This document shows, piece by piece, positions 20,201-64,000 of a DNA stretch of 64,000 bases. Origin of the DNA: Rostratula benghalensis (taxonomy: Eukaryota; Chordata; Aves; Charadriiformes; Rostratulidae); NCBI GenBank assembly GCA_013399305.1, contig VXAI01000065.1, forward strand, positions 3,007,103 to 3,071,102. Direction: 5' to 3'. Positions within the stretch are counted from its first letter, which is position 1. The number at the start of each line of letters is the position of its first letter. Under the pieces are notes generated by a model. That model worked only from the letters and a program-made list of their open reading frames with translations, was not told the origin of the DNA and did no database searches. A program made the position numbers and the translations under genes.

Positions 20201-23200
20201 CACGTCAGCTCAGTAAAGTTGTTAATGGTGTTTTAACTGATAGCTATTGTTTATAAATATTGGAAGTCAGGGGACTCACAACTTTGCATTCTTTACTGTT
20301 GCTGCCTGTACTCACAAATGCATTCAACATTTTCTGGGTGAAGATGTTAATGATTGCTATTGAAAAAGAGTATCTTGTTATATTCTCACCTACCTGAAGA
20401 TCGTGAGACCACCATCATCTGCCACCTTACTTAATACTCCTTTGTTCCAGCTTTATTATTGGGTCTAACTTGATACAAGGCTTAACTGAGCTTACCTCTG
20501 CCCTCTCCTTTTCTGTAACTGTGAATGCTATTTCAGTCTTGATACAGTATCTTCTTAATAGAATTCTAGAATTTTTAGTTAAGAATTTTTGTTTCTATCA
20601 ACAAAATTTTGTTTCAGTCAAAATAGATCGTACACTCCTGAAATGAGGAAGATGATGTTTGTAAAAGTTTATCAGCTTCCCATGCACACTTCCTTCTTCA
20701 AGGAAACTTAACATATAGGAAAGATTTCTTTAGTCCGCAAGGTTCTAGAAACACACAAACTGTAATCTTCATCCAGTTTTAAGCCTTAAAATTTCTTTGT
20801 GATTAAGAGCAGCACTTGTTCTGGTTAGGCAGACTGCCCATCATGCTGTTTCTGAATACAGTTTGCAGTACTGTCTAAACAGCTAGCAAAATGATTTTCA
20901 GCACTTAGAATCATAGAATCGTCCATGTCAAAGGGACCTCTAGCATCTTCTACTCTGAACTCCCTGAAATCAGCAGGGACACCCCCAACTTGACCAGGTT
21001 GTTCAGGGCCTCGTCAAGCCTCACCTATCTCCCAGGAAGGGACCTCAACCACCTCCCTGGGCAATCTGTTCCAGTGTTCCACCACCCTCATAGTAACGAA
21101 CTAATTCCTGATATCCAATCTAAATCTGCTCTTCTCCAGCTTGAAACCATTGCTCCTCATCCTGTCACTACAGGCCTTTGTAAACAGACTCTCCCCAGCC
21201 TTCCTGTAGGCCCCCTTCAGGTACTGGAAGGCTGCTCTTAGGTGTCTCCAGAGCCTCCTCTTCTCCAGGCTGAACAACCCCAACTCCCTCAGCCTGTTCA
21301 CATAGCAAAGGTGCTCCAGCTCCCTGACCATTTCTGTGGCCCTCCTCTGGACTTGTTCTATCAGGTCCATGCCCTTCCTATATTGAGGGCTCCAGACCTG
21401 CACACAGAACTCCAGGTGAGGTCTCACCAGAGCAGAGTAAAGGAGCAGAATCACCTCTCTGGATCTGCTGGCAACACTTTTTTTGATGCAGCCCAGGATG
21501 CAATTGGTCTTCTGGGCTGCAAGTGCACACTGCCTTCTCATGTCCAGCTTCTCATTCAACAAGGACCCCCAAGTCTCTTTCCTCAGGACTGCTTTCTAAT
21601 ACCTTATCCCCTAGTCTGTATTGATAGGATTGTTCCAGCCCAGGTGCAGAACCCTGCACTTGCTCTTGTTGAACCTCATGAGGTTCACCTGTGCCCACTT
21701 CTCCAGCCTGTTCAGGCCCCCTCTGGATGACATCCCATCCCTCTGGTGTAGTGACAACACCACACAGCTTGGTGTCATCTGCAAACATGCTGATGGTGAA
21801 CTCAATCCCTCTTTCTATATTGTTGATGAAAATGTTAAACAATACTGGTCCCAGCACGGACCCTTGAGGGAGACCACTTGTCACTGCTCTCCATCTGGAC
21901 CTTGAGCCATTGAGTACCACCCTCTGGGTGCAACATCCAGCCAGCTCCTTATCCACTGAACAGTCCACCCAGCCATATGCTGTCTAGATCATCCTTTGTC
22001 CACACCACTGGACACAAATTAAAACACTCTGATACATTCTTGGCAGGGTTTAAGGAGGGATTTAGAGCTCTTACTGTTAGAACTAGTGGTCTTCTCCTGC
22101 TGGTGATATGCAGGAGGCAAAGAATGCATGGCCCTGAGTTTTGGGGGTTGTCTCTGTCATCATATAGACTGGAAAATAAATAATGCTTTAGCTTGAAGCT
22201 GAGAAAATTTGTTACTGTTCACTCTCAGTAGTGTCTACAGTACATACTGCCTGTTTTCTAGATACTTCTAAAAGGATGTGAAATGAATTTGTGCTGTTGT
22301 TTGGCATGGACAAACTCTCCTAATTGTTGAGACTGACCAGTTTAATATATTGCCCAAAGATTTTAAAGAAAAAAAATAGTTAGACTGCAAAACTCATGAA
22401 AAATTTAAAAATGCATGGCAGTCTTCTTTCTGGGCGCTTCAGATTAGGCTTCAAGAATTTTTTGCAGTAATTGCAAGAGCAAGAATTTTTGTTTAACTTT
22501 TATATATTAACAGAAGGCATGAACTTCCTTAATATACAATGATTCCAGGAACTGGGACTGCAGAAGCTTAGCAAACACTGGGAGAATTGCACTAAAATTA
22601 ATAATATCTGAAAGGTCAGCAAAGACTTTTCATATTAAACACCCATTTTCATCAAGCAAAAGGAGGCTGCAGTTTTCAAAACAGTCTACCATGACGTAGC
22701 AGCTGGGAAGCAGGTATGGTTTCCTTGGAGATGTGTCTTTTCTTAAGAAATATGGCTCATGCTGAGCCTTTGGGTAATTTTTAGGGAGTCACTAGAACTG
22801 TTACCTTCTAGTTCATTATCTTTGAAAAAATAGTGTTTACATGACAGAAGTATTAAGTGTAATAGAACCTAATATTTCTTTCTTCTAATCTTTACTGTTT
22901 GAAAAAGTGAATTTTATAAATGAGTGAAACACAGGAAACTCTTTTTTTCAACAAGTTCAACAAGGCTGAGTGCAAGGTCCTACTCCTGGGTTGCACAATC
23001 CCAAGTACAAATACAGTCTGGGAAGACAATGGATTGAGAGCATCCCTGAGGAGAAGGACTTGGAGGAGTTGGTGGATGCCAAACTGAATAAAAGCCAGCA
23101 ATGTGTGTTTGCAGCCCAGAAAGCCAACCGCACTCTGGGCTGCATCAAAAGTGTGGCAGGCAGGTTGAGGGAGGTGATTCTGCTCCTCTACTGTTCTTTG

Positions 23201-26200
23201 GTGAGACCCCACCTGCAGTACTGTGTTCATTCAGCCATGGGGCCCCCCAGCTTAAGAAAGATGTGGGCCTGTTGGAGTGGTGCCAGAGGAGTGCCCCAAA
23301 GATAATCAGAGGGCTAGAGCACCTCTCCTCTCCTATGAAGACAGGCTGAGAGGGTTGAGAATGTTCAGCCTGGAGAAGAGAAGGCTCGAGGGAGACATTA
23401 TAGCAGCCTTCTAGTACCTAAAGAGAACCTACAGTAAAGATGAGGCAGGACTCTATCAGGGAGTGGAGCGATAGGACGAGGGGTAATGCTTTCAAACTGA
23501 AAGAAGGGAGATCTAGGTTAGATACTAGGAAGAAATTCTTTACTGTGAGGGTGACAAGATACAGAACAAGTTACCCAGGGAAGCTGTGGATGCCCCATCC
23601 CTGGAAGTGTTCAAGGCCAGGTTGTACGAGGCTTTGAGCAAACTGGTCCAGTAGGAGGTGTCCCTGCTCATGGCAGAGGGGTTGGAACTCTATGATCTTG
23701 ATCTGTAAGGTCCTTGCTGACTCTAACCATTCTATAATTGTATGGCTCTGTTTACTTTATTTTGATGACTTCATTAATTTATGTTTTTAACACAGTTATG
23801 TTTTAGTTTATGAAGAGGAAAAGCAGTCTCTGTGGACTGACTTATTTTAGATGGTGAGAAAATCCTTGTTACCAGGATCAAAACATGTTCTTCCATATGC
23901 AGAAATATATGTGGCAGTCTGCATAAGCTGCTCTAATTCTGTCGTTATCTCTTCCCTGGATTTTACCCTTGAATCTGAAAATGTAGCCTTTCCTAGATAT
24001 TCTATTTTCCTCAATTAGAATAATATGTTGAGATGAATGATGCATAATAGTTTCATTTTGAGAGTCAGAAAAACTGGAGTTGTGCGCCTTTGTGAAAAAG
24101 TATTCCAAATAATAAGTGAACTTAGTCTGCAAATGAAGTCAATACATTCCCACGCAGTCTTCTCACAAAATGACAAGAGCTGGCATAAACCAACTGAATA
24201 GTTAAGGCTTGCCAGGGGTAGAAGCAAAAGTCATGCTAAAAATGAGAGCAGAGGTGTTTGTACAGCCCTTTTGAAAGCACTGCTAATGAAAAAACATGTT
24301 TTTCTCCATCAGAAGCTCTTTGTTATTATTAAAGTGAAACCAGACAAAAATGCTAGGTTCCTAGAGGGAAAGAAAAATTATAAACCTCTTGGTACCTCAA
24401 ACCACTTCAGGTGTTTTTTGGTAATTTAAACTAATGTAATAAACAACAAATTACTCCAAATTTCAAAACTTGTTTAGGCTGTGTAATTGGTGGATGAAAC
24501 TTTAGCCATAGAAACAAAGAGATTCAGTGCATCTCATCTGTTAACAAGAAACTAACTCTTGACATTTCACTTGATGTTTTGGCAGAATAAAAGAGGCATC
24601 CTCTCAGCCCAGGCGAGAATACCAGCCCAAGCCCCGTATGAGTCTGGATTTCACAACTGGTGACAATACCCAGCACAATGGAGGAATATCCCATGCGACC
24701 ACACCCAAACCATCAGGTAATAGCAGAGAAGAAAATGTGAGAAGAAAAGCCACAAAAGTTTTGCTACATGCAGAATTTCCTACATGCTACATGCTTTCTG
24801 GTAGAGAGTAGTTAGAGAGTAGTTCTTCCACAGTGAGGGAAAATGAGACTAGGGAGAGTATAAGAGAGAGCTTTATGAACTGTTGGTTCTTTGTAAAGTG
24901 TTCACATTCACAGGCAGGAGAACAGGGATGGATCATCCACTGCTTCAAATGTGTCTTTGAGTCAAAAATTCCCTTAGTCCTAGAAGCTTAAAGAGATGCT
25001 GCTGTACTAAATTCACCTTGAAGTATAGATCTTTACAAAAAAAAACATTTAGAAAACAAAAGGAGAACTGGAAGTTTTCTATGAAAATGCAGAACCTTGA
25101 ACCCCTCCAAAACCTCCATAACCTTCTCCTGCTTTTTAAAACCAGGTATTGCAACACAAAGAGCCTGAAAGTGAAAATCTCTAAAAAGAAAAACAAAGCC
25201 ATCTTACTTAGTTTCGTAATCCAATTGGGAGCGGCACAGGCAAGATTAAGCATTTATATGACTGTGCGTGATTATTATATTGTTTATTTCATATCAGCAT
25301 ATACTAAGAAAGCCTTTAATATTTGTTTCTCACAGTAATAGTCTGGTATCCCATGTTATGGCAAGGGTTGGCCTCTGTCCAGACCTGATCTCAGTTATTC
25401 CAGTTTACCTCAGTGACAATTGTAGCACACTCCACCTTGCAAGACTGGATTTTTTTCACTAGATCTTTTATCAGGATTTCTTTCCATCTCATCACATCCT
25501 GATGTGAATGTTAATGTTCTCCCCAATTCAGGCAACCACAGTATCTCCATTTGGCACCTGCAACTGGAAATTGTCTTGCATAATCTTGCAAACTCCTAGT
25601 AATCTCCTCACAATGCTGGCAAGGAGCAGGATACAATGGAGATTCATTGTGCATGAGGGTGGCTTGAGTATTGCATGCTAAAGCACTTGTCATGCCACCA
25701 GTAATCCTTTTCTTTACATTGTTTTTGTAGTGTCATGAATACTTGTCTTATGCTAAGGCAGTGCAGGATGATGTTCCCGTGTCTCTTCAGCATTTGCGTT
25801 TTCCTCTTCACAGAGCAGTATTTAGCATTTTCTTCAATAGGTGTTCTTTCTTTTGTATTGTTTATTGCTTTCAGAGAAGCATCTTACTTTTGAAAATTCA
25901 TTAGTGCATATTTAGATTGGTCCATTCAAAGCTCTGATCTTCTACGGTCATTAGAGTTTATTTTCTAAGTCTTCAAAATTTCAGCTAGTAGCAATGAGCA
26001 TACCAAACATCCATTGTAAGACTGTGCCAGCAAAACAGTCTTCATAACAAATAAAGCAAAATACACTGCGAGTGATGTCTAAAGAAGTTAAAGAAGGTTT
26101 TACTACAGAATTTAATAAATTGAATCTGTTATTTTAACAACTTGTGCTATTGACATCTATAGAAATGGAATATTGTTGTGCTAAAATAACTCAAGCATGA

Positions 26201-27441
26201 GCATTCCAGCTGTAGTGAGTGGCTGAAATGCATATGCAAAAAGATTGAATCTGAAATGTATTCATCCTGAAGCCAGTGTACATGAAAAAGCTGAAATTTG
26301 TATACTTAGAAGCGCCATTATGGTGGAGTCGCATGTGTCCATTCATTATGACCATTAGAAGTGCATGAACCTTTACTGTGGAAAGTCAGGTAGGGATCTA
26401 AAACTCCTTATAATTCAGTGCTGCTAAATCCTAAGTATTTTGACCAGTAATGATCTTGCTTTTGATAGGCTGGAAGCTATAGAGACTTTGGGCCAGGGGA
26501 CAAGACGGGGAATGTGGAGGGTGGATTAGTAGTTATTAATTTTGTATAATGTATGAAAATATAATCTAACTAATGACATTTTAATGTCCATTAGCCATCA
26601 TAAAGGTTTTATGGTCAGAGGTTCATGAACTAGCATATTAAAAAGCTTTCCGTTTCAAACTTGTTCTGAATATATCCGAGTGGCTCTACAATTCTTTTGT
26701 GCGAATGGGGAGAAGAGGTCTTTGGAAACCTCATGCTAATATTCAGAGGACTAGGAGCATGTATTGGGGTTTACAGTACAGCTATACCAATGATGTTTCC
26801 AAACAAAGGACAAAGACACAATTATATCTTCACTGTTGCTTTTAGCCTTACACTACTTGAAGTAAACAGACAAAGCATCTCTGTGTCAGTAAAGCTGGAA
26901 ATAGATTAGGGCTTTTCCTTTTTTTTTTGTGTGTGTTTTGTAAGCAGATAAAAATAGCTTCCCAATGGATTGTAGCCATGCTTTTAGGTGGGTTCTTGAC
27001 TGTAGCTTGGTTCTTTTAGACATTTACTAGCAGTTACATATGAAAACTGAAGGCTGCCAAAAGCTGATAGCTGTCTTCCAGTGAAGCTTAGCTGTCCAAA
27101 TTTAGTTGTTATCAAAGAACTGTCATCAACATATGACTGACACCAGAAATGGCAAAATCTGTAGTGGGTACAATGGTAAAAGGGCTACTGTAAATCTTGA
27201 GATTTTAAAGCCCATTGTTTCTTTGTGTTTCTTCTCCATAGGTGTTCACATGGATCAGCCATGCTGCCGAGCCCTGTATGACTTTGAACCAGAAAATGAA
27301 GGAGAGCTGGGATTTAAAGAGGGTGATGTCATTACCCTCACTAACCAGATTGATGAAAACTGGTATGAGGGTATGCTTCATGGCCAGTCAGGTTTCTTTC
27401 CCATCAATTATGTGGATATTCTCGTTCCTTTGCCCAATTAG
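8192..27441 (+). CDS. SH3GL2: SH3GL2 (endophilin-A1), exons 2-9, 5'-partial
   Basis: Endophilin-A1 is a cytosolic presynaptic protein. Its N-terminal BAR domain dimerises, senses and bends membranes, and its C-terminal SH3 domain recruits dynamin and synaptojanin during synaptic-vesicle endocytosis. Eight coding exons, all with GT-AG borders and matching phases, join at 8192-8260, 10473-10545, 15409-15552, 17389-17522, 18260-18418, 19881-19984, 24586-24716 and 27242-27441. They give 337 codons plus a TAG stop. The missing first exon (amphipathic H0 helix, about 15 residues in this family) lies upstream of the window, making the expected total 352. I chose SH3GL2 over SH3GL1 and SH3GL3 from paralogue-specific stretches such as [20 protein letters not shown] and [12 protein letters not shown]. 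The BAR domain spans roughly residues 16-247, a short variable linker follows, and SH3 spans about 290-349. No stop, frameshift or splice defect is seen, so this is a functional gene. CDS identity is very secure. Confidence 0.97.
8261..10472 (+). other. SH3GL2 intron 2
   Basis: This intron is 2.2 kb. A locally GC-rich stretch at about 9210-9560 holds overlapping reading frames on both strands with no family resemblance. Nothing else stands out. Confidence 0.85.
10473..10545 (+). CDS. SH3GL2: SH3GL2 exon 3
   Basis: This exon has 73 bp, entering in phase 0 and leaving in phase 1. The acceptor is TCTGTCCTTTAG and the donor GTAATG. It encodes [20 protein letters not shown] flanked by K and PNP (about residues 39-62), part of BAR helix 1 up to the start of the membrane-inserting loop. 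The final G joins CT of exon 4 to make alanine 63. Confidence 0.97.
10546..15408 (+). other. SH3GL2 intron 3
   Basis: This intron is 4.9 kb. It contains a GC-rich patch at about 10840-11000 and a purine-only tract at 12859-12980. No transposon was recognised. Confidence 0.85.
12859..12980 (+). repeat. Purine tract, (GGAAAA)n-like
   Basis: About 120 bases of almost pure purine are built from GGAAAA and GGAGAA units, degenerating at both ends. It is a polypurine-polypyrimidine microsatellite of a type able to form triplex DNA. Confidence 0.9.
15409..15552 (+). CDS. SH3GL2: SH3GL2 exon 4 (BAR insert region)
   Basis: This exon has 144 bp with the acceptor GTGCTTCAG and the slightly weak donor GTAACT. 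It encodes about residues 63-110, beginning [20 protein letters not shown] and ending EECNF. It carries the endophilin-specific insert at the apex of the BAR crescent. The family's exposed hydrophobic positions (A66, M70), which dip into the bilayer, are present. The last G pairs with GA of exon 5 to give glycine. Confidence 0.97.
15553..17388 (+). other. SH3GL2 intron 4
   Basis: This intron is 1.8 kb of AT-rich sequence without recognisable repeats or exons. Confidence 0.85.
17389..17522 (+). CDS. SH3GL2: SH3GL2 exon 5
   Basis: This exon has 134 bp with the acceptor TTTTCTTTCAG and donor GTATTG. It encodes about residues 112-155, including [20 protein letters not shown] and [14 protein letters not shown], a long helix of the BAR domain with heptad-like hydrophobic spacing. 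Reading continues open beyond the donor for about 200 bp, but the next exon matches the family exactly in phase, so read-through is not expected. Confidence 0.97.
17523..18259 (+). other. SH3GL2 intron 5
   Basis: This is a short intron of 737 bases with nothing notable beyond splice signals. Confidence 0.85.
18260..18418 (+). CDS. SH3GL2: SH3GL2 exon 6
   Basis: This exon has 159 bp (53 codons), phase 0 at both ends, with the acceptor GTTTTTTAG and donor GTGAGA. It begins [20 protein letters not shown] and ends [12 protein letters not shown] (about residues 156-208). The basic stretch [16 protein letters not shown] lies on the lipid-facing surface of the BAR dimer in this family. The following helix ([20 protein letters not shown]) is a coiled-coil segment. 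Confidence 0.97.
18419..19880 (+). other. SH3GL2 intron 6
   Basis: This intron is 1.46 kb of AT-rich sequence. No repeats or exons were recognised. Confidence 0.85.
19881..19984 (+). CDS. SH3GL2: SH3GL2 exon 7
   Basis: This exon has 104 bp with the acceptor CAATCCTCAG and donor GTAATG. It encodes [20 protein letters not shown] followed by [14 protein letters not shown] (about residues 209-242), the last BAR helix. It leaves two bases (AG) that pair with A of exon 8 to form arginine. The intron that follows is 4.6 kb and holds two CR1 elements. Confidence 0.97.
20908..21980 (-). mobile_element. CR1 LINE, 5'-truncated
   Basis: The left edge carries the CR1 3' terminus (GAATCATAGAATC, the ATTCTATGA tail reversed). 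The minus strand reads as the C-terminal part of the CR1 reverse transcriptase, with [17 protein letters not shown] and the FADDTKL catalytic box at about 21750-21900. It then continues through the ORF2 C-terminus ([20 protein letters not shown]). The two main reading frames (21101-21562 and 21552-21968) are shifted relative to each other, so the copy is dead. About 1.07 kb of the 3' part of a CR1 is present. Confidence 0.95.
22955..23745 (+). mobile_element. CR1 LINE, 5'-truncated
   Basis: It begins in the part of CR1 ORF2 that reads [12 protein letters not shown] and runs to a degenerate ATTCTATAATTGTATGG tail. It includes the conserved CR1 3' UTR signature (GGTTGGAACTCTATGATC near 23681). 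The reading frame is broken several times. It is in the opposite orientation to the CR1 a kilobase upstream in the same intron. Confidence 0.95.
24586..24716 (+). CDS. SH3GL2: SH3GL2 exon 8 (linker)
   Basis: This exon has 131 bp with the acceptor TTTTGGCAG and donor GTAATA. It encodes about residues 243-286, starting with [20 protein letters not shown] and ending TTPKPS. This is the proline- and serine-rich flexible linker between the BAR and SH3 domains, normally the least conserved part of endophilins. Here it contains [20 protein letters not shown], which departs more from mammals than the other exons do, as expected for a linker. Confidence 0.95.
24717..27241 (+). other. SH3GL2 intron 8
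   Basis: This intron is 2.5 kb of AT-rich sequence with short reading frames only. No transposon was recognised. Confidence 0.85.
27242..27441 (+). CDS. SH3GL2: SH3GL2 exon 9 (SH3 domain and stop)
   Basis: This exon has 200 coding bases with the acceptor CTTCTCCATAG and a TAG stop at 27439-27441. It encodes the whole SH3 domain: an [15 protein letters not shown] hallmark, the NWYEGM tryptophan motif and the GFFPINYV closing strand. These residues form the groove that binds proline-rich tails of dynamin and synaptojanin. The protein ends ILVPLPN, slightly different from the mammalian tail as I recall it. Confidence 0.97.
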
Positions 27442-28709: not shown

Positions 28710-29427
28710 TGCTGAGAGAATAACTAGAATAATGTTGTGGATTATTACTGTGTTGCTTTCAAATCTATTGTCCTAACGTCATCTAACAAGCATTTTATTT
28801 CAGAAAGCATATTCCTCATTTCCTGCAAATGTGAAAAATATATTTTATGTCATCATCATATTGCTATGGTAGGAACTCACATGTGTAATGGCCCTCATAA
28901 ACAGAATAAACTGAACACTGAGCACATTAAATTAGTGTCATGATGACCAGCGTGCAATCTTATGGATACAGGTAGTTTCTCATTAAAGAAGGGTGGTATT
29001 CTCAAACCCCTTTAAAGACATAAAGTGTAAAGATGTGGTAACTTACAATTCATTTTTAATTTGATATGGGACATCATTATATTTACTTTCATGTTCTTTG
29101 TTATACACATTGTTGTGGGTTAGCCTTGGCAAAGAGCCAACTCACAAAGAGCTCACTCACTGTTCCTCCTCAGTGGGAGGATAAGAAAGTTCATGGGTTG
29201 AGATAAAGGCAGGGATATTTCTTACTGGTCACTGTCACTAGCAAAACAGATTTGACTTGGAGATAACTAATTTATTACCAATTACACCAGACTTACGCAG
29301 TGAGAAACAAAAAAGATAAACTTTAAAATAACATGTTTCCTGCCCCAATTCCCAAGCTTAAATTCACCCTGTCATTCCTGACTCCTCCCCACTGGAAGGG
29401 CCAGGGTGTGTGGAATGGTAGGTTGGT

Positions 29428-29713
29428 CTAAATAGCCCCGTCTCAGGGAAGGCTGTCTTTATGGAGTTTGGGCTGCCCAGCCAGCAAATGTCTCCTTCTC
29501 CCATGTCCCACGGACACTATTCCATGCACTGTTTACACTCCGCGGGCCACTCTCAGCCTGACAGCTCGTACAGCACAGCTTCGTCCTTCTCCCAATCGCT
29601 GGGCTACCCCTATGTGAACTTGGCCAGCAGCCACTCGACCAACCCCTACATCAGTGCAGTGCAGTCCTACCCCAACAGCCCCAGCCTGACTCAGACCCGG
29701 TTAGAGGGGACAG
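29428..29713 (+). pseudogene. DLX1-like fragment: DLX1 exon 1 fragment embedded in an LTR
   Basis: DLX1 is a homeodomain transcription factor of forebrain and craniofacial development. This segment reads as its N-terminal exon: LNSPVSGKAVFMEFG, then QQMSPSPMSHGHYSMHCLHS, AGHSQPDSSY, LGYPYVN, NPYISAVQSYPNS and TQTRLEGTG. It corresponds to about residues 10-105 of the vertebrate protein, at roughly 80 percent identity to the mammalian protein by eye. The frame is fully open. The normal first Met is missing: an in-frame TAG sits at 29419, but an internal ATG lies at 29461. At 29713 the similarity ends exactly where DLX1 exon 1 ends, followed by a GTAGGT donor, so intron sequence was copied too. 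The homeodomain (exons 2-3) is absent. It is much more GC-rich than its surroundings. A functional product is unlikely; a non-coding or chimeric transcript is possible. Confidence 0.88.
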
Positions 29714-29787
29714 GTAGGTGCACTTGGCTTTGGGGAGGTGAAAGGGAGGGGAGGGGGGAAGGGAAAGCAAGGAGGGAGGAAGGGTAG
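29714..29787 (+). other. DLX1 intron-1-like flank
   Basis: A GTAGGT donor is followed by GCACTTGGCTTTGGGG and a G/A-rich tract, up to the point where LTR-like sequence resumes (about 29788). This is best read as the beginning of DLX1 intron 1 carried along with the exon. The assignment comes from position and phase; I have no intron reference to compare. Confidence 0.55.
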
Positions 29788-30271
29788 ACTCATGCATAGC
29801 AGCTACTCTCTGCTGCTCCTTCCTCCTCACAGTTTTCCCCCTGTTCCAGCAGTGGGTCCCTGCACAGGCCACAGTGTGAATATCTGCTGGTATATCGTGA
29901 ACCATCTTCTTCTCATCCTTTGCCCTTGATGTTGCCTCTCCTGTTTCTCGCTCTTCTGGTTTTCCCCTCCTCCTCTCTCTGCCCAGTGTGTTTTGCTCTT
30001 TCTTAAGTATGTTTTCTCTGAGGCGCCACCATCTTGCTTGAGGAGCGCAGCCAGGTCCTGCTGTGGGTCCGTTGGAGCTGCCTGGAACCAGACATGTTAG
30101 GCACGAGGCAGCTCCAGCCTCTCAGAGAGGCTGCCTTGCAGCCTCCCACTACCAGTGCCTAGTCATATAACCATCTAGGCCTATCCAAGGGATGCCCCTA
30201 CATCTGTCAACAGAGACTGACAGAGTGGAACAAGACTGAATCTGACAGAAATGGAGCCTCATTCAAGGCTC

Positions 30272-30388
30272 AGTTCAAGGTCAGGTTCAAGGGGGCTCTG
30301 ACCAACCTGATCTAGTTGAAGACATCCCTGGTCACTGCAGGGTGGTTGGACTAGCTGATATTTAAAGATGCCTTCCAATCCAAACTAT
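30272..30388 (+). mobile_element. CR1 3' terminal fragment
   Basis: A short piece of the CR1 3' end is present: GTTCAAGGTCAGGTTCAAGG, GTCACTGCAGGGTGGTTGGA, CTAGCTGATATTTAAAGATG and CCTTCCAATCC. These are the terminal CR1 hallmarks without the preceding ORF. Confidence 0.85.
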
Positions 30389-33299: not shown

Positions 33300-34040
33300 T
33301 TGAAGTTAATGAAGGTCCTGTCAAGCCACTTCTCCAGTTTGTCCAGGTTCCTCTCGATGCCAGCACAGCCCTCTGTATCAGCCATCCCTCCCTGATTTGT
33401 ATCATCTGCAAAGTTACAGAGAGTGTGTTGTGCCTAAACTTCAAGATCATTAATCACAGAATAATTATCTCATAGAACAGTTTGTGTTGGAAGGAACCTT
33501 TGAAGATCATCTAGTTCCAAACTCCCACCCCTCAATGGGCAGGGCCATCTTTCACTATATCAGACTGCTCAAAACCCTGTCCAGTGTGACTTCCAATGCT
33601 GTGACATCCACAGCTTCTCTGGTCATCTCGTTCCAGTGTTTCTCCACCCTTATCACAAAACAGTTTATTTCTTATGTCCAAGCTGTAATTATCTTCTTTC
33701 AGTTTAAAACAGCTGTCCCTTGTCCTGTCACTACAGACTCCAGTAAAAAGTTTCTCTAGCTTTCTTATACACCCCTTTTGTATACTGAAAGGCTGCCATA
33801 AGGTCTCTCTGGAGCCTTCTCTTCTCCATGCTGAAGAACCCCAATGCTCTTAGTTTCTCTTCATAGGGGACATGCTCCAATTCCCTGATGATTCTCATGG
33901 CCCTCTTCTGGACTCACTTTAATGAAGATGTTGAACAGGATTGCACCCATTATTCATTATCACTACAGGTAGACACCATTCATGGCAGGTCTTCAGTTGG
34001 TCGTTGTACCACTGACCGTAACCCTCTAGGCTCAGTTTCA
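33300..34040 (-). mobile_element. Older CR1 copy, interrupted by a younger CR1
   Basis: The left block (33300-33454) contains CACTTCTCCAGTTTGTCCAG and a ATCATCTGCAAAGTTACAGA stretch. The right block (33919-34040) resumes at TAATGAAGATGTTGAACAGG and ends with CCACTGACCGTAACCCTC. Together these follow the order of a CR1 RT/3' region on the minus strand, split by an insertion. The subfamily differs from the other copies here and the sequence is more diverged. Confidence 0.8.
33455..33922 (-). mobile_element. CR1 3' fragment nested in another CR1
   Basis: It begins with ATCTCATAGAACAGTTTGTG and GTTGGAAGGAACCTTTGAAG, the reversed CR1 terminus. It runs through CTCTTCTCCATGCTGAAGAA and GGCCCTCTTCTGGACTCAC, the normal CR1 3' order on the minus strand. 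It is flanked on both sides by the pentamer TTAAT (33450-33454 and 33919-33923), a possible target duplication. Confidence 0.85.
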
Positions 34041-38309: not shown

Positions 38310-39850
38310 TTTGCAGATGTACAAATCCGTGGGACTTGATGAGATACATCCACAGTTCTGAGGAAATTGGCAGATAAAGTTGCTAAGCCACTATCCATAA
38401 TATCTGAGAAGTTGTGGCAGTTTGGTGAAGTTCCCACTGACTGGAAAAGGGCACACATAAACCCCCTTTTTAAAAAGGTGAAAAACAAGACCCAAGGGAC
38501 TACAGACTGGTCAGTCTCACCTCCGTGCCCAGTACAATCATGGAGCAGATCCTCCTGGAAACTCTGCTGAGGCACACAGAAAATAAGAAGGTGATTAGTG
38601 ACCACCAAAATGGCTTCACTGAAAGCAAATTGAGTCTGACAAATTTGGTCGCCTGCTACAACAGGGTTACAACATTGGTGGACAAGGGAAGACCAACTGA
38701 CCTCATCTACCTGGACTTGTGCAAATCATTTGATGCTGTCCCACATGGCATTCTTGTCTCTAAATTGGAGAGACATAGATTTGACTGAGGGACTACTTGG
38801 TGGATAAGGAATTGGATGGATGATCTCACTCAAAGAACTGTGGTCAATGGCTCAATGTCTACATGGGGAACACTGGTAAGTGGTGTTCCTCAGGGGTTGG
38901 TACTGGGATGGGTGTTTAACATCTTTGTTGGTGACATAGGCAGTGGGATTGAGTACACCCTCAGCAAGTTTGCTGATGACACCAAGCTGTGTGGCACAGT
39001 TGACATGCTGGAAGGAAAGGATGCAATCCAGAGGGACCTGGACAGGCTTGAGAGGTGGATTTGTGCAAACGTCATGAAGTTCAAGCAAACCAAGTGCAGG
39101 GTCCTACACCTGGGTCAGAGCAATCCTGAGCACAAATACAGGATGAACAGAGAATGGATTGAGAGCAGCCCTGAAGAGAAGTTGGGGTTGGTGGATGAGA
39201 AGCTCAATATGAGCCAGCAATGTGCACTTGCAGCACAGAAAGCCAAACACATCCTGGTCTGCATCAAAAGAAGAGTGGACAGCAGGTCACAGGAGGTGAT
39301 TCTGCCTTTCTACTCTGCTCTCATGAGACCCTACCTGGAGTTCTGTGTCCAGATCTGGAACCCCTAACATAAGAGGGACATGGACCTGTTGGTCCATAGA
39401 GCAAGTCCAGAGGATGGCCACGAACATGATGATGTGATGACAAGCTGAGATAATTGGGATTGTTCAGCCTGGGGAAGAGAATGCTGCACGGATACCTTAC
39501 AGGAGCCTTCCAGCACTTAAAGGGGACCTACAGGAGGGATGCGGAGAGACTCTCAGGAACTGCACTGATAGGATGAGGAATAATTTTTTGAAACAAAAAG
39601 AGGGGCAATTTAGATGAGATATTATGAACAAAGTCTTTACTTTGGGGGTTGTGAGACACTGGAACAGGTTACCCTGTTGTGGGTAGTTGTGGATGTCCCG
39701 TTCCTGGAAGCGTTCAAGGCTAGGCTGGATGGGACTTTGAAGAAACTGGTTTAGTGAGAAGTGTCCCTGCCCATGGTAGGGGGGCTGGAACTCGATAATG
39801 TTTAAGGTCCCTTCCGACTCTAACCATTCCATGATTCTATGATTCTATAA
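38310..39850 (+). mobile_element. CR1 LINE with most of the RT domain
   Basis: This is the longest CR1 in the window (about 1.5 kb). The plus strand reads RT segments in three shifted frames. First come fingers/palm pieces, including [19 protein letters not shown] and [20 protein letters not shown] (motif A, with the catalytic Asp as LDLCKSFD). [10 protein letters not shown] and the FADDTKLCG box (about 38960-39000) follow, then the ORF2 C-terminus. It ends with the ATTCCATGATTCTATGATTC tail. Frameshifts and a stop between 38788 and 38816 show it is inactive. Confidence 0.96.
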
Positions 39851-40989
39851 ACCTTCAGATGCTGCTGCTCGAGTGCACTTAACAGAGAAAACAAGTAACA
39901 GGTGAAGTGTCTTGCATTAACAACATTTAGGAACAGCTAAACATCTAGCAGCATCTGGTATTCTTGGGGTAAGCACTCCTGTAAACTTGGAGCAACTACT
40001 GATGGTGTCTGGTCATAGTGTGAGACAGAAAGAGATGCTGTAGTCTAGGAGCCTGGTGAGTAACTCTGGTAATTGAAAAGGGTAATTAGAAATATCTGAC
40101 TGGTTGGTATCAAGTAGGTTGCCATCCATGGTCCCTGCTTAGCCTGGCACAAAGGAAAGAGCAAGAAACTTCTGAACGAATTCTCTTGTCTCAGAGAAAT
40201 AAGATTAAAAGCACTGGGATACATTCTTCTCTTTCAATTAGGTGTGAAGATTTTCTTTGTGTGTGTGAGCATCTCATAGTTTCTGCTTTTATTATTTCTA
40301 GTTAGGACCAAGAGAGTTAAACTTTCCAACAAAAAATATTTCTAAAGTGTTGATTTATCAGTCAAAATATTTTGTATAAGTTTCTGTGTGAATATACTTA
40401 ACATAGTTTCTGACATCTTGAAAAGGACTAAAGCATAGATAATCTTCCACATTGATAAGATATCACAGGTAGTTTTATTTTGTAAAACATCTTTAAAAAG
40501 GAATGGATAAATTTTCTGACTCGCTGATCTTATGTTACAGCTGCAGAAATGGAGAAATCTTTCCTAACAATGCAGGCGATCTGACATTTGGAAGAATTAA
40601 TAATTACAACCTGTGATTGTTCTTCAAGAAGTGATCAAAATTCCATTTCCCATACCTGTTTAGGGTATCAGAAAGGTCTGAAGACTCGTGAGATTTTTTC
40701 TTTGCCCCTCTCTTAATATCTGTGCTCTTTCTTCACCTCTGCAATCTGTTGGTGTGTGAACAGAGTTGAGGAGTTTGCTCCATTCAAGACTGGTTTTCAT
40801 TCTGGGCTGATGTTAGAGGCTGACAAAGAGAAATCATAAAAACCAGTGTCAGGTGACAACATGTGTATCAGTAGTGAGACTGGGCATAAAAGCAAATGTC
40901 ACAAACTTTTACACAAGGCAATAAAATATGGTGGGAAGCAGAACTGGTGCCAGGGGCATATTGATCTGTTCATATGTTTGGTATGAACG

Positions 40990-41667
40990 TCATAGAATCA
41001 TTAGAGTTGGAAAGGACCTTGAAGATTATTGAGTTCCAACCTCCCTGCCATGGGCAGGGACACCTCCCACTAGACCAGGTTGTTCAAAGACCCATCCAGC
41101 CTTGTCTTGAACACTTCCAGGGATGGGGCTTCCCATACTTCTTTGGGGAACCTGTTCCAGTGTCTCACCACCCTCGGAGTAAAGAATTTCTTTCTAGTAT
41201 CTAATTTAAATCTCTCCTCTTTCAATCTTAAACCACTACCACTTATCCTATTCACTACACACCCTGATAAAGAGTCCCACTCCAGCTCTCGTGTAGGTTC
41301 CCTTCAGATACTGGAAGGCTGCTATAATGTCTACCCTGAGTCTTCAGGCTGAACAACCCCAACTCTCTCAGTCTGTCTTCATAGGAGAGGTGCACCAGCC
41401 CTCTGGTCATCTTTGTGGCCCTCTGCTGGACTTGTTCCAACAGGTCTATGTCTTTTCTGTGCTGAGGACTCCAGAGCTGGACACAGTACTCCAAGTGGGA
41501 TCTCCCGTGAGCAGAGTAGAGGGGTAGAATCACCTCCTGTGACCTGCTTCTTTTGATGCAGTCCAGGATGTGGTTGGCCAGTGTGCACTGCAGTCTCATG
41601 CTTGCTGAGGGTGAATTCTATCCCACTGTCCATATCTGCAACAAAGATGTTAAACAGCCCTGCTAGC
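40990..41667 (-). mobile_element. CR1 LINE fragment with internal deletion
   Basis: The reversed tail CATAGAATCATTAGAGTTGG is followed by TTGGAAAGGACCTTGAAGAT and the usual CR1 3' order on the minus strand. Near 41600 the sequence jumps from the region encoding SMRLQC to one encoding [12 protein letters not shown] few hundred bases of ordinary CR1 are therefore missing in between. Confidence 0.95.
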
Positions 41668-45156: not shown

Positions 45157-45293
45157 NNNNNNNNNNNNNNNNNNNNNNNNNNNNNNNNNNNNNNNNNNNN
45201 NNNNNNNNNNNNNNNNNNNNNNNNNNNNNNNNNNNNNNNNNNNNNNNNNNNNNNNNNNNNNNNNNNNNNNNNNNNNNNNNNNNNNNNNNNNNN
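45157..45293. other. Assembly gap (137 N)
   Basis: An unbroken run of N. The reading frames drawn across it are meaningless. The true gap size may differ. Confidence 1.
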
Positions 45294-46632
45294 CCTCATC
45301 TTCAGGCTAAGATTTTACAACCCTCTGCATATAGTTTACCTTGCAGATAATCTCCACTTCATTTATGGTAAATGTGTCCTCATTAAGCCTAGCTATTTTA
45401 CATTTTTCTTTCTGGATTTCACTCACCCATCTAACAGCTGCACAGTCATACTGTCCCCCCAAGAAAGCCTGCAAACCTGCACCCCAACCAGACCATATGT
45501 GCCCAAGTGTGGTAGGATTTCTGGATGCCTGGGCTCCATGAACCCACTGGGAAACTGCTCAAAAAATGTCAGAATTCATATGTCCATTTCTCTTTCTCAA
45601 TATACATTTGATTTTATCTCCTGGAAAGGCAGGAATGAAAAAATTTACTTCAAAATAAAATTCCTTAGGATTCACTATCAGTTCAGCCTGTAAATGACTT
45701 AGAAAGCCTACAAGACTCCTTAACAAGCTTCTCCCCTTAGGTATTAATGTCTAGATCGATTCCCTAAAGTTATGTGAGAGATATCCGGGTCATTTGCAAC
45801 ACACTTGGTCAAACTAACTGCTTCTGAAATAAACTGATTCATTTTTAAGAAAAGGTTCTGTTTAAAGACCTGCTAGCGGGTTTCCTACTGTTAGTTTCCA
45901 AACCCTATTAATTTTAGTTTTTGAACTTTCCTTGTGCTTGGTCTGGATTCTGCCTTTTTAAAATCATTAGTATATTGCACCATGGAATGAAGTCTGTAAA
46001 GCAGGGGTAATAGGACCTGGCTTACACATTTGTAAAATTCAAGGACAAATATATATACAATCTTGTCAATCATTTATTTAATGACTTCTTGCCTTATTCG
46101 CCTATTACTGCATGTAAAAAGCTTTGTTTTTTTTCCAATTTATAGCATCCTCCAATTTAATATCTCTGTAAGTTATCATAATGCTCGATTGACACAGTAA
46201 CACTGTGTTCATTTCTACAGCAATGAAATGTTAAGTCACAAATACAGAATTATGGCTGTTAACAAAATTATTCTTATCCAAGCATAAATACACCAGATAA
46301 CAAATAGCAAAGGAAATATAGAAAACGGTGGGCCAACTAAATTGTTCTGCATAGAAATACAAACGAATCCGTCTTACAAGGTTGCTCAAGGGACCCTCAA
46401 AAATCATTTGCCTAGCGTTAGTTATTTTAATTAGAGGTCAAACAAAATTGCATTAGAAAATTTAAGGATGGTTTCAAGTGTCCCTAGAGGCAGGAATTTT
46501 CCTGCTGGAAATAGGATCCTTGATACAATTGTTATACTCTACTATGGGGTCTTGCTGTGAAAAAGGTTTTCATAGGAAGACTTCAGTGGGAATTTTCTGA
46601 CTGTTCTTGACAAACAATTGACCTCTTGATAT

Positions 46633-47350
46633 AATCATAGAATCAGAAAATGCTGTGGGTTGGAAGGGATCTCTAATGGTCATCTAACCCATCCCCCTGC
46701 AATGAGCAAGGACACCTTCAACTAGACCAGGTTGCTCAGAGCTCCATCCAACCTGACCTTGAACATTTCCAGGGATCTATCAGCTCTCTGGGCAACTTGG
46801 TACAGTGTTCCATTATCTCCCTTGTATAAAATATCTTCCTTGTAAAAAATGTCTTCCTTATAACTAACCTAAGTCTACCCTCTTTTAGTTTAAAACCATT
46901 ACCTCTTGTCCTATGGCAACAGGCCATACTAAAAGGCTTGTCCCCATCTTTCTTATAGGCCCCTTTTAGGTATTGAAAGACTGGAGCTTTCCCTTCTCCA
47001 GGCTGAACAATCCCATCTCTCTCAGATTGTCCTTGCAGGAGAGGTGCTCCATTTCATTCACCTTCTTTGTGGCCTCCTCTGGACCTGCTCCAACAGGTCA
47101 ATGTCTTTACTGTGCAAAGAATTTCAGAGCTGGACACGGTACTCCACATGGAGACTCAGCAGAGCAGAGTAGAGAGGGAGAATCCCTTCCTTCAACCTCC
47201 TGTCCATGTTTCTTTTGTGGTAGCCTAGGATACAGTTGGTTTTTCATCCACAAGTAACCCCAAGTCCTTCTTGACAGGGTTTCTCTCAATTCCTTTATCT
47301 TCCAGCCTGTATTGAGGTGGAGGACCCTACATGTTTCCTTGTTGAACCTA
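46633..47350 (-). mobile_element. CR1 LINE, 5'-truncated
   Basis: The left end AATCATAGAATCAGAAAATG matches the reversed CR1 tail, followed by GGTTGGAAGGGATCTCTAAT. The minus strand then runs through the CR1 3' UTR and ORF2 C-terminus and breaks off at CCTTGTTGAACCTA. Several frameshifts and small deletions are present. Confidence 0.95.
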
Positions 47351-63849: not shown

Positions 63850-63907
63850 TCCAATCCAATCCAATCCAATCCAATCCAATCCAATCCAATCCAATCCAGT
63901 CCAATCC
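63850..63907 (+). repeat. (CCAAT)n microsatellite
   Basis: Eleven CCAAT units with one interruption (CCAGT) begin exactly where the CR1 sequence stops. Confidence 0.97.
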
Positions 63908-63908
<1 letters not shown>

Positions 63909-63999
<91 letters not shown>

Positions 64000-64000
64000 T
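63909..64000 (+). repeat. (CTTT)n microsatellite, runs off window
   Basis: A perfect CTTT array of 23 units reaches the window edge. The true length is unknown. Confidence 0.97.

What the first reader, a model, noticed from the sequence alone, without database searches (positions are those of the whole stretch)
29428..29713. A DLX1 homeobox-gene exon fragment sits inside a retroviral LTR
A 286-base open segment encodes most of DLX1 exon 1 (for example SPMSHGHYSMHCLHSAGHSQ and LGYPYVN). It is bracketed by sequence I recognise as two halves of one avian ERV LTR: left half ending near 29421, right half resuming near 29788. In vertebrates DLX1 is paired with DLX2 on another chromosome and not near SH3GL2. 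Host-gene capture inside an LTR, or insertion of duplicated host DNA into one, would be unusual. If the LTR spread after capture, the fragment could be present in many genomic copies and be transcribed from the LTR.
Basis: partly seen in the sequence, partly recalled or inferred. Interest (0 to 1): 0.9.

Follow-up and report, generated by a model that had tools for sequence, protein, structure and literature searches.

The report
DLX1 gene scrap in old LTR
A roughly 360-base piece copied from the developmental gene DLX1 sits once inside an older, decayed LTR-like repeat beside the SH3GL2 gene of what looks like a bird genome; it is most likely a drifting gene scrap of a known sort, not a gene carried by a virus.

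Summary
Window 29426-29713 is DLX1 exon 1 from codon 10 to the exon end, followed by a splice donor and about 70 bases that probably belong to intron 1. It interrupts an LTR-type repeat (29111 to about 30177) whose inferred sense strand is -, so DLX1 is antisense to it. The genome's own DLX1 exon 1 lies on another contig (C869) and differs at 5 of 279 bases, all changing the protein, three at CpGs. A genome-wide protein search (66 of 66 candidates scored) finds DLX1 exon 1 at two places only: the gene and this window. Of 26 distinct other LTR loci examined, 17 align across the insertion point, none of these 17 with the insert. The LTR's left half averages 75.6% identity to 24 other copies, against 98% for the insert, so the insert looks much younger than the LTR. 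This argues strongly against an LTR that captured DLX1 and spread. Best reading: a one-off patch-type insertion (like a class 2 templated sequence insertion), with a 3-base microhomology at the left joint and no clear target-site duplication or poly(A). The right joint could not be checked: the gene's intron reads N. Low interest.

The parts
29426..29713 (+). DLX1 exon 1 fragment (codon 10 to exon end; codons 1-9 and the 5' UTR absent)
   Evidence: 29705-29713 not comparable with the gene, which reads N there
29714..29785 (+). splice donor GTAGGT and probable first ~70 bases of DLX1 intron 1; right limit uncertain by several bases
   Evidence: donor in sequence; similarity to the intron read-through of the unnamed DLX1 record P0001, 7 of 500 shuffles as good; the gene's own intron reads N
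29111..29428 (-). LTR-type repeat, left half (inferred 3' part of the element; - strand AATAAA at 29271-29276)
29786..30177 (-). LTR-type repeat, right half (inferred 5' part of the element); outer end approximate
29426..29428 (.). GTC shared by DLX1 and the LTR at the left joint (microhomology)
27235..27441 (+). last coding exon of SH3GL2 (SH3 domain), about 2 kb upstream of the insert

Best explanation
A single ~360-base piece of the DLX1 gene (exon 1 from codon 10, splice donor, probably the start of intron 1) was copied and inserted once into a pre-existing, decayed solo LTR downstream of SH3GL2. The most likely route is repair of a germline double-strand break with a patch from a distant locus (a class 2 templated sequence insertion). 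Whether the patch was DNA or reverse-transcribed unspliced RNA is open. Since then it has drifted as a pseudogene fragment. Shown: the DLX1 match, only one further exon 1 copy found, empty LTRs, large difference in divergence, missing start codon. Inferred: the repair route, the intron part, the element's sense strand and the lack of function.
For: Exon 1 found in 2 places only, 66 of 66 candidates scored. 17 of 26 distinct LTR loci align across the joint without insert. Parent vs copy 5/279 differences, all nonsynonymous, 3 at parental CpGs. LTR left half vs 24 copies: 75.6% mean identity, best 80.1% over 181 bases. Splice donor kept, intron-like sequence after it. GTC shared at the left joint. 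These features fit the class 2 insertions of PMC5110952 (abstract and sections 6, 8, 9 read).
Against: The right joint cannot be compared with the parent, whose intron reads N. The intron similarity is modest (7 of 500 shuffles). A 5-base repeat, GGTAG, lies at 29417 and 29783; I read it as chance because the LTR copies continue past the left one, but a short target-site duplication is not wholly excluded. No reads or second assembly were available. LTR divergence partly reflects differences between source elements, not only age. Two of the 17 spanning alignments are weak (L030 63 bits, L031 78 bits).
Confidence: 0.82

Rival explanations
1. LTR-mediated retroposition or retroviral capture: a reverse transcriptase switched from element RNA to a DLX1 transcript, and the chimeric element then integrated here, perhaps with other copies elsewhere.
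For: The fragment sits exactly inside an LTR-type repeat with a 3-base shared stretch at one joint; [quoted passage not shown]
Against: DLX1 is antisense to the inferred sense strand; the fragment keeps a splice donor and probably intron; it is much less diverged than the LTR; no other exon 1 copy was found and 17 spanning LTR copies lack it.
Confidence: 0.05
2. Assembly chimera: DLX1 reads were wrongly joined into an LTR.
For: The DLX1 gene's own sequence turns to N right after the matching part, so that region was hard to assemble or is withheld.
Against: The fragment is not the gene's sequence: 5 differences, each at a residue identical in the 12 other DLX1 aligned. Two false joins into the two halves of one LTR would be needed, and the window's only N run is at 45157-45293.
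Confidence: 0.05
3. Mobilisation of an unspliced DLX1 transcript by a LINE (CR1) enzyme.
For: CR1-like repeats are present in the window (self-matches; the name is recalled).
Against: No poly(A) and no clear target-site duplication at the insert; no CR1-like 3' end seen by eye.
Confidence: 0.06

Closest known systems
Class 2 templated sequence insertion polymorphisms (TSIPs; Onozawa and Aplan, PMC5110952)
   Same: Short fragment from a distant locus, no clear target-site duplication, no poly(A), microhomology at a joint.
   Different: Described there in human; here in an apparent bird genome, with polymorphism unknown and the right joint unchecked.
LTR-mediated retrocopies (Tan et al. 2016, known to me only through passages of review PMC5408686)
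   Same: Host gene sequence enclosed by LTR sequence, with a short shared stretch at a joint.
   Different: Here the piece looks unspliced, is antisense to the inferred element strand, lies inside the LTR body and is less diverged than the element.

Membership tests
Class 2 templated sequence insertion | sequence from a distant genomic region | tested here: met
   parent on contig C869, insert on C881
Class 2 templated sequence insertion | no target-site duplication of 5 bp or more | tested here: met
   only 5-7 base matches between 29390-29445 and 29740-29835, none flush with both joints; nearest is GGTAG at 29417 and 29783, beyond which the LTR copies continue
Class 2 templated sequence insertion | no poly(A) tract | tested here: met
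   insert ends in a purine-rich stretch without an A run
Class 2 templated sequence insertion | microhomology, microdeletion or added bases at joints | tested here: inconclusive
   left joint shares GTC; right joint not comparable because the parent reads N
LTR-mediated retrocopy | spliced mRNA origin | tested here: inconclusive
   splice donor followed by intron-like sequence argues against, but the gene's own intron is not held
LTR-mediated retrocopy | insert and element integrated together (similar divergence) | tested here: not met
   98% identity to parent against 75.6% mean identity of the LTR left half to 24 copies
LTR of an avian endogenous retrovirus | dispersed copies with a common TG end and a poly(A) signal | tested here: met
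   43 of 45 rows; TG at the extrapolated left end in 11 of 15 distinct loci whose alignment reaches it; - strand AATAAA in this copy
LTR of an avian endogenous retrovirus | CA-type other end and target-site duplication | tested here: inconclusive
   several copies read ...ACA near the far end, but this copy does not clearly; no matching duplication of 5-6 bases found, with the outer end uncertain
LTR of an avian endogenous retrovirus | internal retroviral genes next to copies | tested here: inconclusive
   10 of the 40 open frames listed scanned with Pfam: none retroviral, one LINE-type endonuclease; only ~1.5 kb of flank was held per locus

The most novel reading that the evidence does not exclude
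The fragment lies sense to SH3GL2, about 2 kb past its stop codon, and keeps an intact-looking splice donor. Read-through SH3GL2 transcripts in neurons could carry DLX1 sequence or be spliced from it, giving a lineage-specific transcript.
Probability: 0.03. Interest if true: 0.35.

Novelty: new member of a known kind. Interest (0 to 1): 0.15.

Why it matters
It is a worked case of a small, young gene fragment patched into an old repeat, and shows how nesting inside an LTR can look like viral gene capture until copy number and relative divergence are checked. It does not support a new viral or regulatory system.

Tried and rejected
Rejected: a DLX1-bearing LTR family. Rejected: need for selection to explain the open frame; under my assumed model five random substitutions leave it open in 83% of 5000 simulations, and all changes are nonsynonymous, as here, in 14%. 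Led nowhere: Pfam and PDB with the fragment (0 matches); DLX1 in viral contigs (14 pattern stretches, 0 confirmed); LTR patterns in viral contigs (0; 9 stretches, not examined, taken as chance) and in genome contigs (0); plasmids and phages (no match); protein search with the antisense frame across the right joint (0 of 71 candidates at E <= 1); Rfam over the window (0); promoter/terminator scan (0, bacterial patterns, not informative here). Paper searches showed, in the listed titles and abstract starts, no paper on a DLX1 fragment in an avian LTR; two searches listed 20 of 38 and 15 of 116 papers.

Full report
What is there. The 29428-29721 translation is DLX1 exon 1 from codon 10 on (72 of 73 candidates at E <= 0.001, best 92% identity over the whole query; 12 of the 72 aligned). 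All 72 hits, read, carry the start region missing here. The exon ends at 29713 with a GTAGGT donor. The DNA after it resembles the intron read-through of the unnamed DLX1 record P0001: 7 of 500 dinucleotide shuffles scored as well, best alignment ending near 29782. So the piece looks like unspliced gene sequence; this is suggestive, not proven.

The parent gene. One search of the window's own genome (1.087 Gb, 1298 contigs) with 29000-30250 gave 45 rows: the window, one match of 98% on contig C869, and 43 rows for parts of the flanking repeat; 40 of 199 candidates were scored, so repeat counts are lower bounds. The C869 place has the start codon, the missing codons and GC-rich upstream sequence, so it is DLX1 exon 1. 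Directly after the matching part it reads N for at least 13 kb; I cannot tell an assembly gap from withheld sequence. A protein search with the DLX1 record P0017, 66 of 66 candidates scored, found exon 1 in two places only, C869 and the window; the other 9 of 11 matches are 37-56% identical and lie mainly in the homeodomain part. An insert-only DNA search did not complete.

The flanking repeat. Both flanks belong to one dispersed element. Of 28 fetched loci out of the 43 repeat rows (26 distinct, since L014/L019 and L033/L034 overlap), 17 align across the insertion point and none of these 17 has the insert; L030 and L031 are weak. The other 9 do not cover the point in one alignment. TG stands at the extrapolated left end (window 29111) in 11 of 15 distinct loci whose alignment reaches it, and several copies read ...ACA near the position of window 30177; this copy does not clearly. 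A - strand AATAAA lies at 29271-29276. From this I infer an LTR with its sense strand on -, so DLX1 is antisense to it. Against a full claim: no target-site duplication of the LTR was found, and 10 of 40 listed flanking open frames showed no retroviral domain, one showing a LINE-type endonuclease. The LTR family name and the bird origin are recalled or inferred, not tested.

Relative age. Insert and parent differ at 5 of 279 bases (1.8%, 95% range 0.6-4.2%); all five change the protein and three are at parental CpGs. The five residues are identical in the 12 other DLX1 aligned, though fish hits carry S at one of them, as the copy does. Parent and insert share two residues (ISAVQ, NSPS) that differ from those 12, which suggests that the copy came from this lineage's DLX1. 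The LTR left half has 75.6% mean local identity to 24 other copies (best 80.1% over 181 bases), seventh lowest of the 25 compared; over longer stretches of the element the BLAST identities are about 57-70%. Even allowing for old differences between source elements, the insert looks much younger. With assumed neutral rates of 1.5-3e-9 per site and year (not measured here) it would be about 6-12 million years old, with a range of about 2-28.

How it got there. The left joint shares GTC between the gene and the LTR. The LTR appears to lose at most a few bases: several copies continue from that point into sequence matching the window's right flank near 29786. There is no poly(A) and no target-site duplication flush with the joints; the nearest candidate is GGTAG at 29417 and 29783. 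These are the marks given for class 2 templated sequence insertions, in which a break is patched with sequence from a distant place (PMC5110952, abstract and sections 6, 8, 9). LTR-mediated retroposition, reported for chicken according to a review (PMC5408686, passages), is the main rival; orientation, unspliced look, relative divergence and copy number speak against it.

Function. Nothing seen indicates one, and expression could not be tested. The open frame needs no selection to stay open after so few changes (83% of simulations), and the start codon is gone. The boldest reading left is accidental use of the retained splice donor by read-through transcripts of SH3GL2, whose last coding exon ends about 2 kb upstream on the same strand.

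Noticed in passing
L011 (C869:6429060-6432338) with L040 and L041: The DLX1 gene reads N from the end of the matching exon part for at least 13 kb; DLX1 homeobox exons were not found at high identity in the genome as held.
   Followed up: partly
L011:1501-1803: This genome's own DLX1 has two substitutions (ISAVQ, NSPS) not seen in the 12 DLX1 sequences aligned.
   Followed up: no
window 20960-23744, 30273-30382, 33503-33914, 38800-41659, 46626-47243: Related interspersed repeats, probably CR1 LINE pieces (name recalled), matching one another in both orientations.
   Followed up: no
window 45157-45293: Run of N inside the window.
   Followed up: no
window 63850-64000: Simple-sequence arrays (TCCAA)n and (TCTT)n at the window's end.
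   Followed up: no
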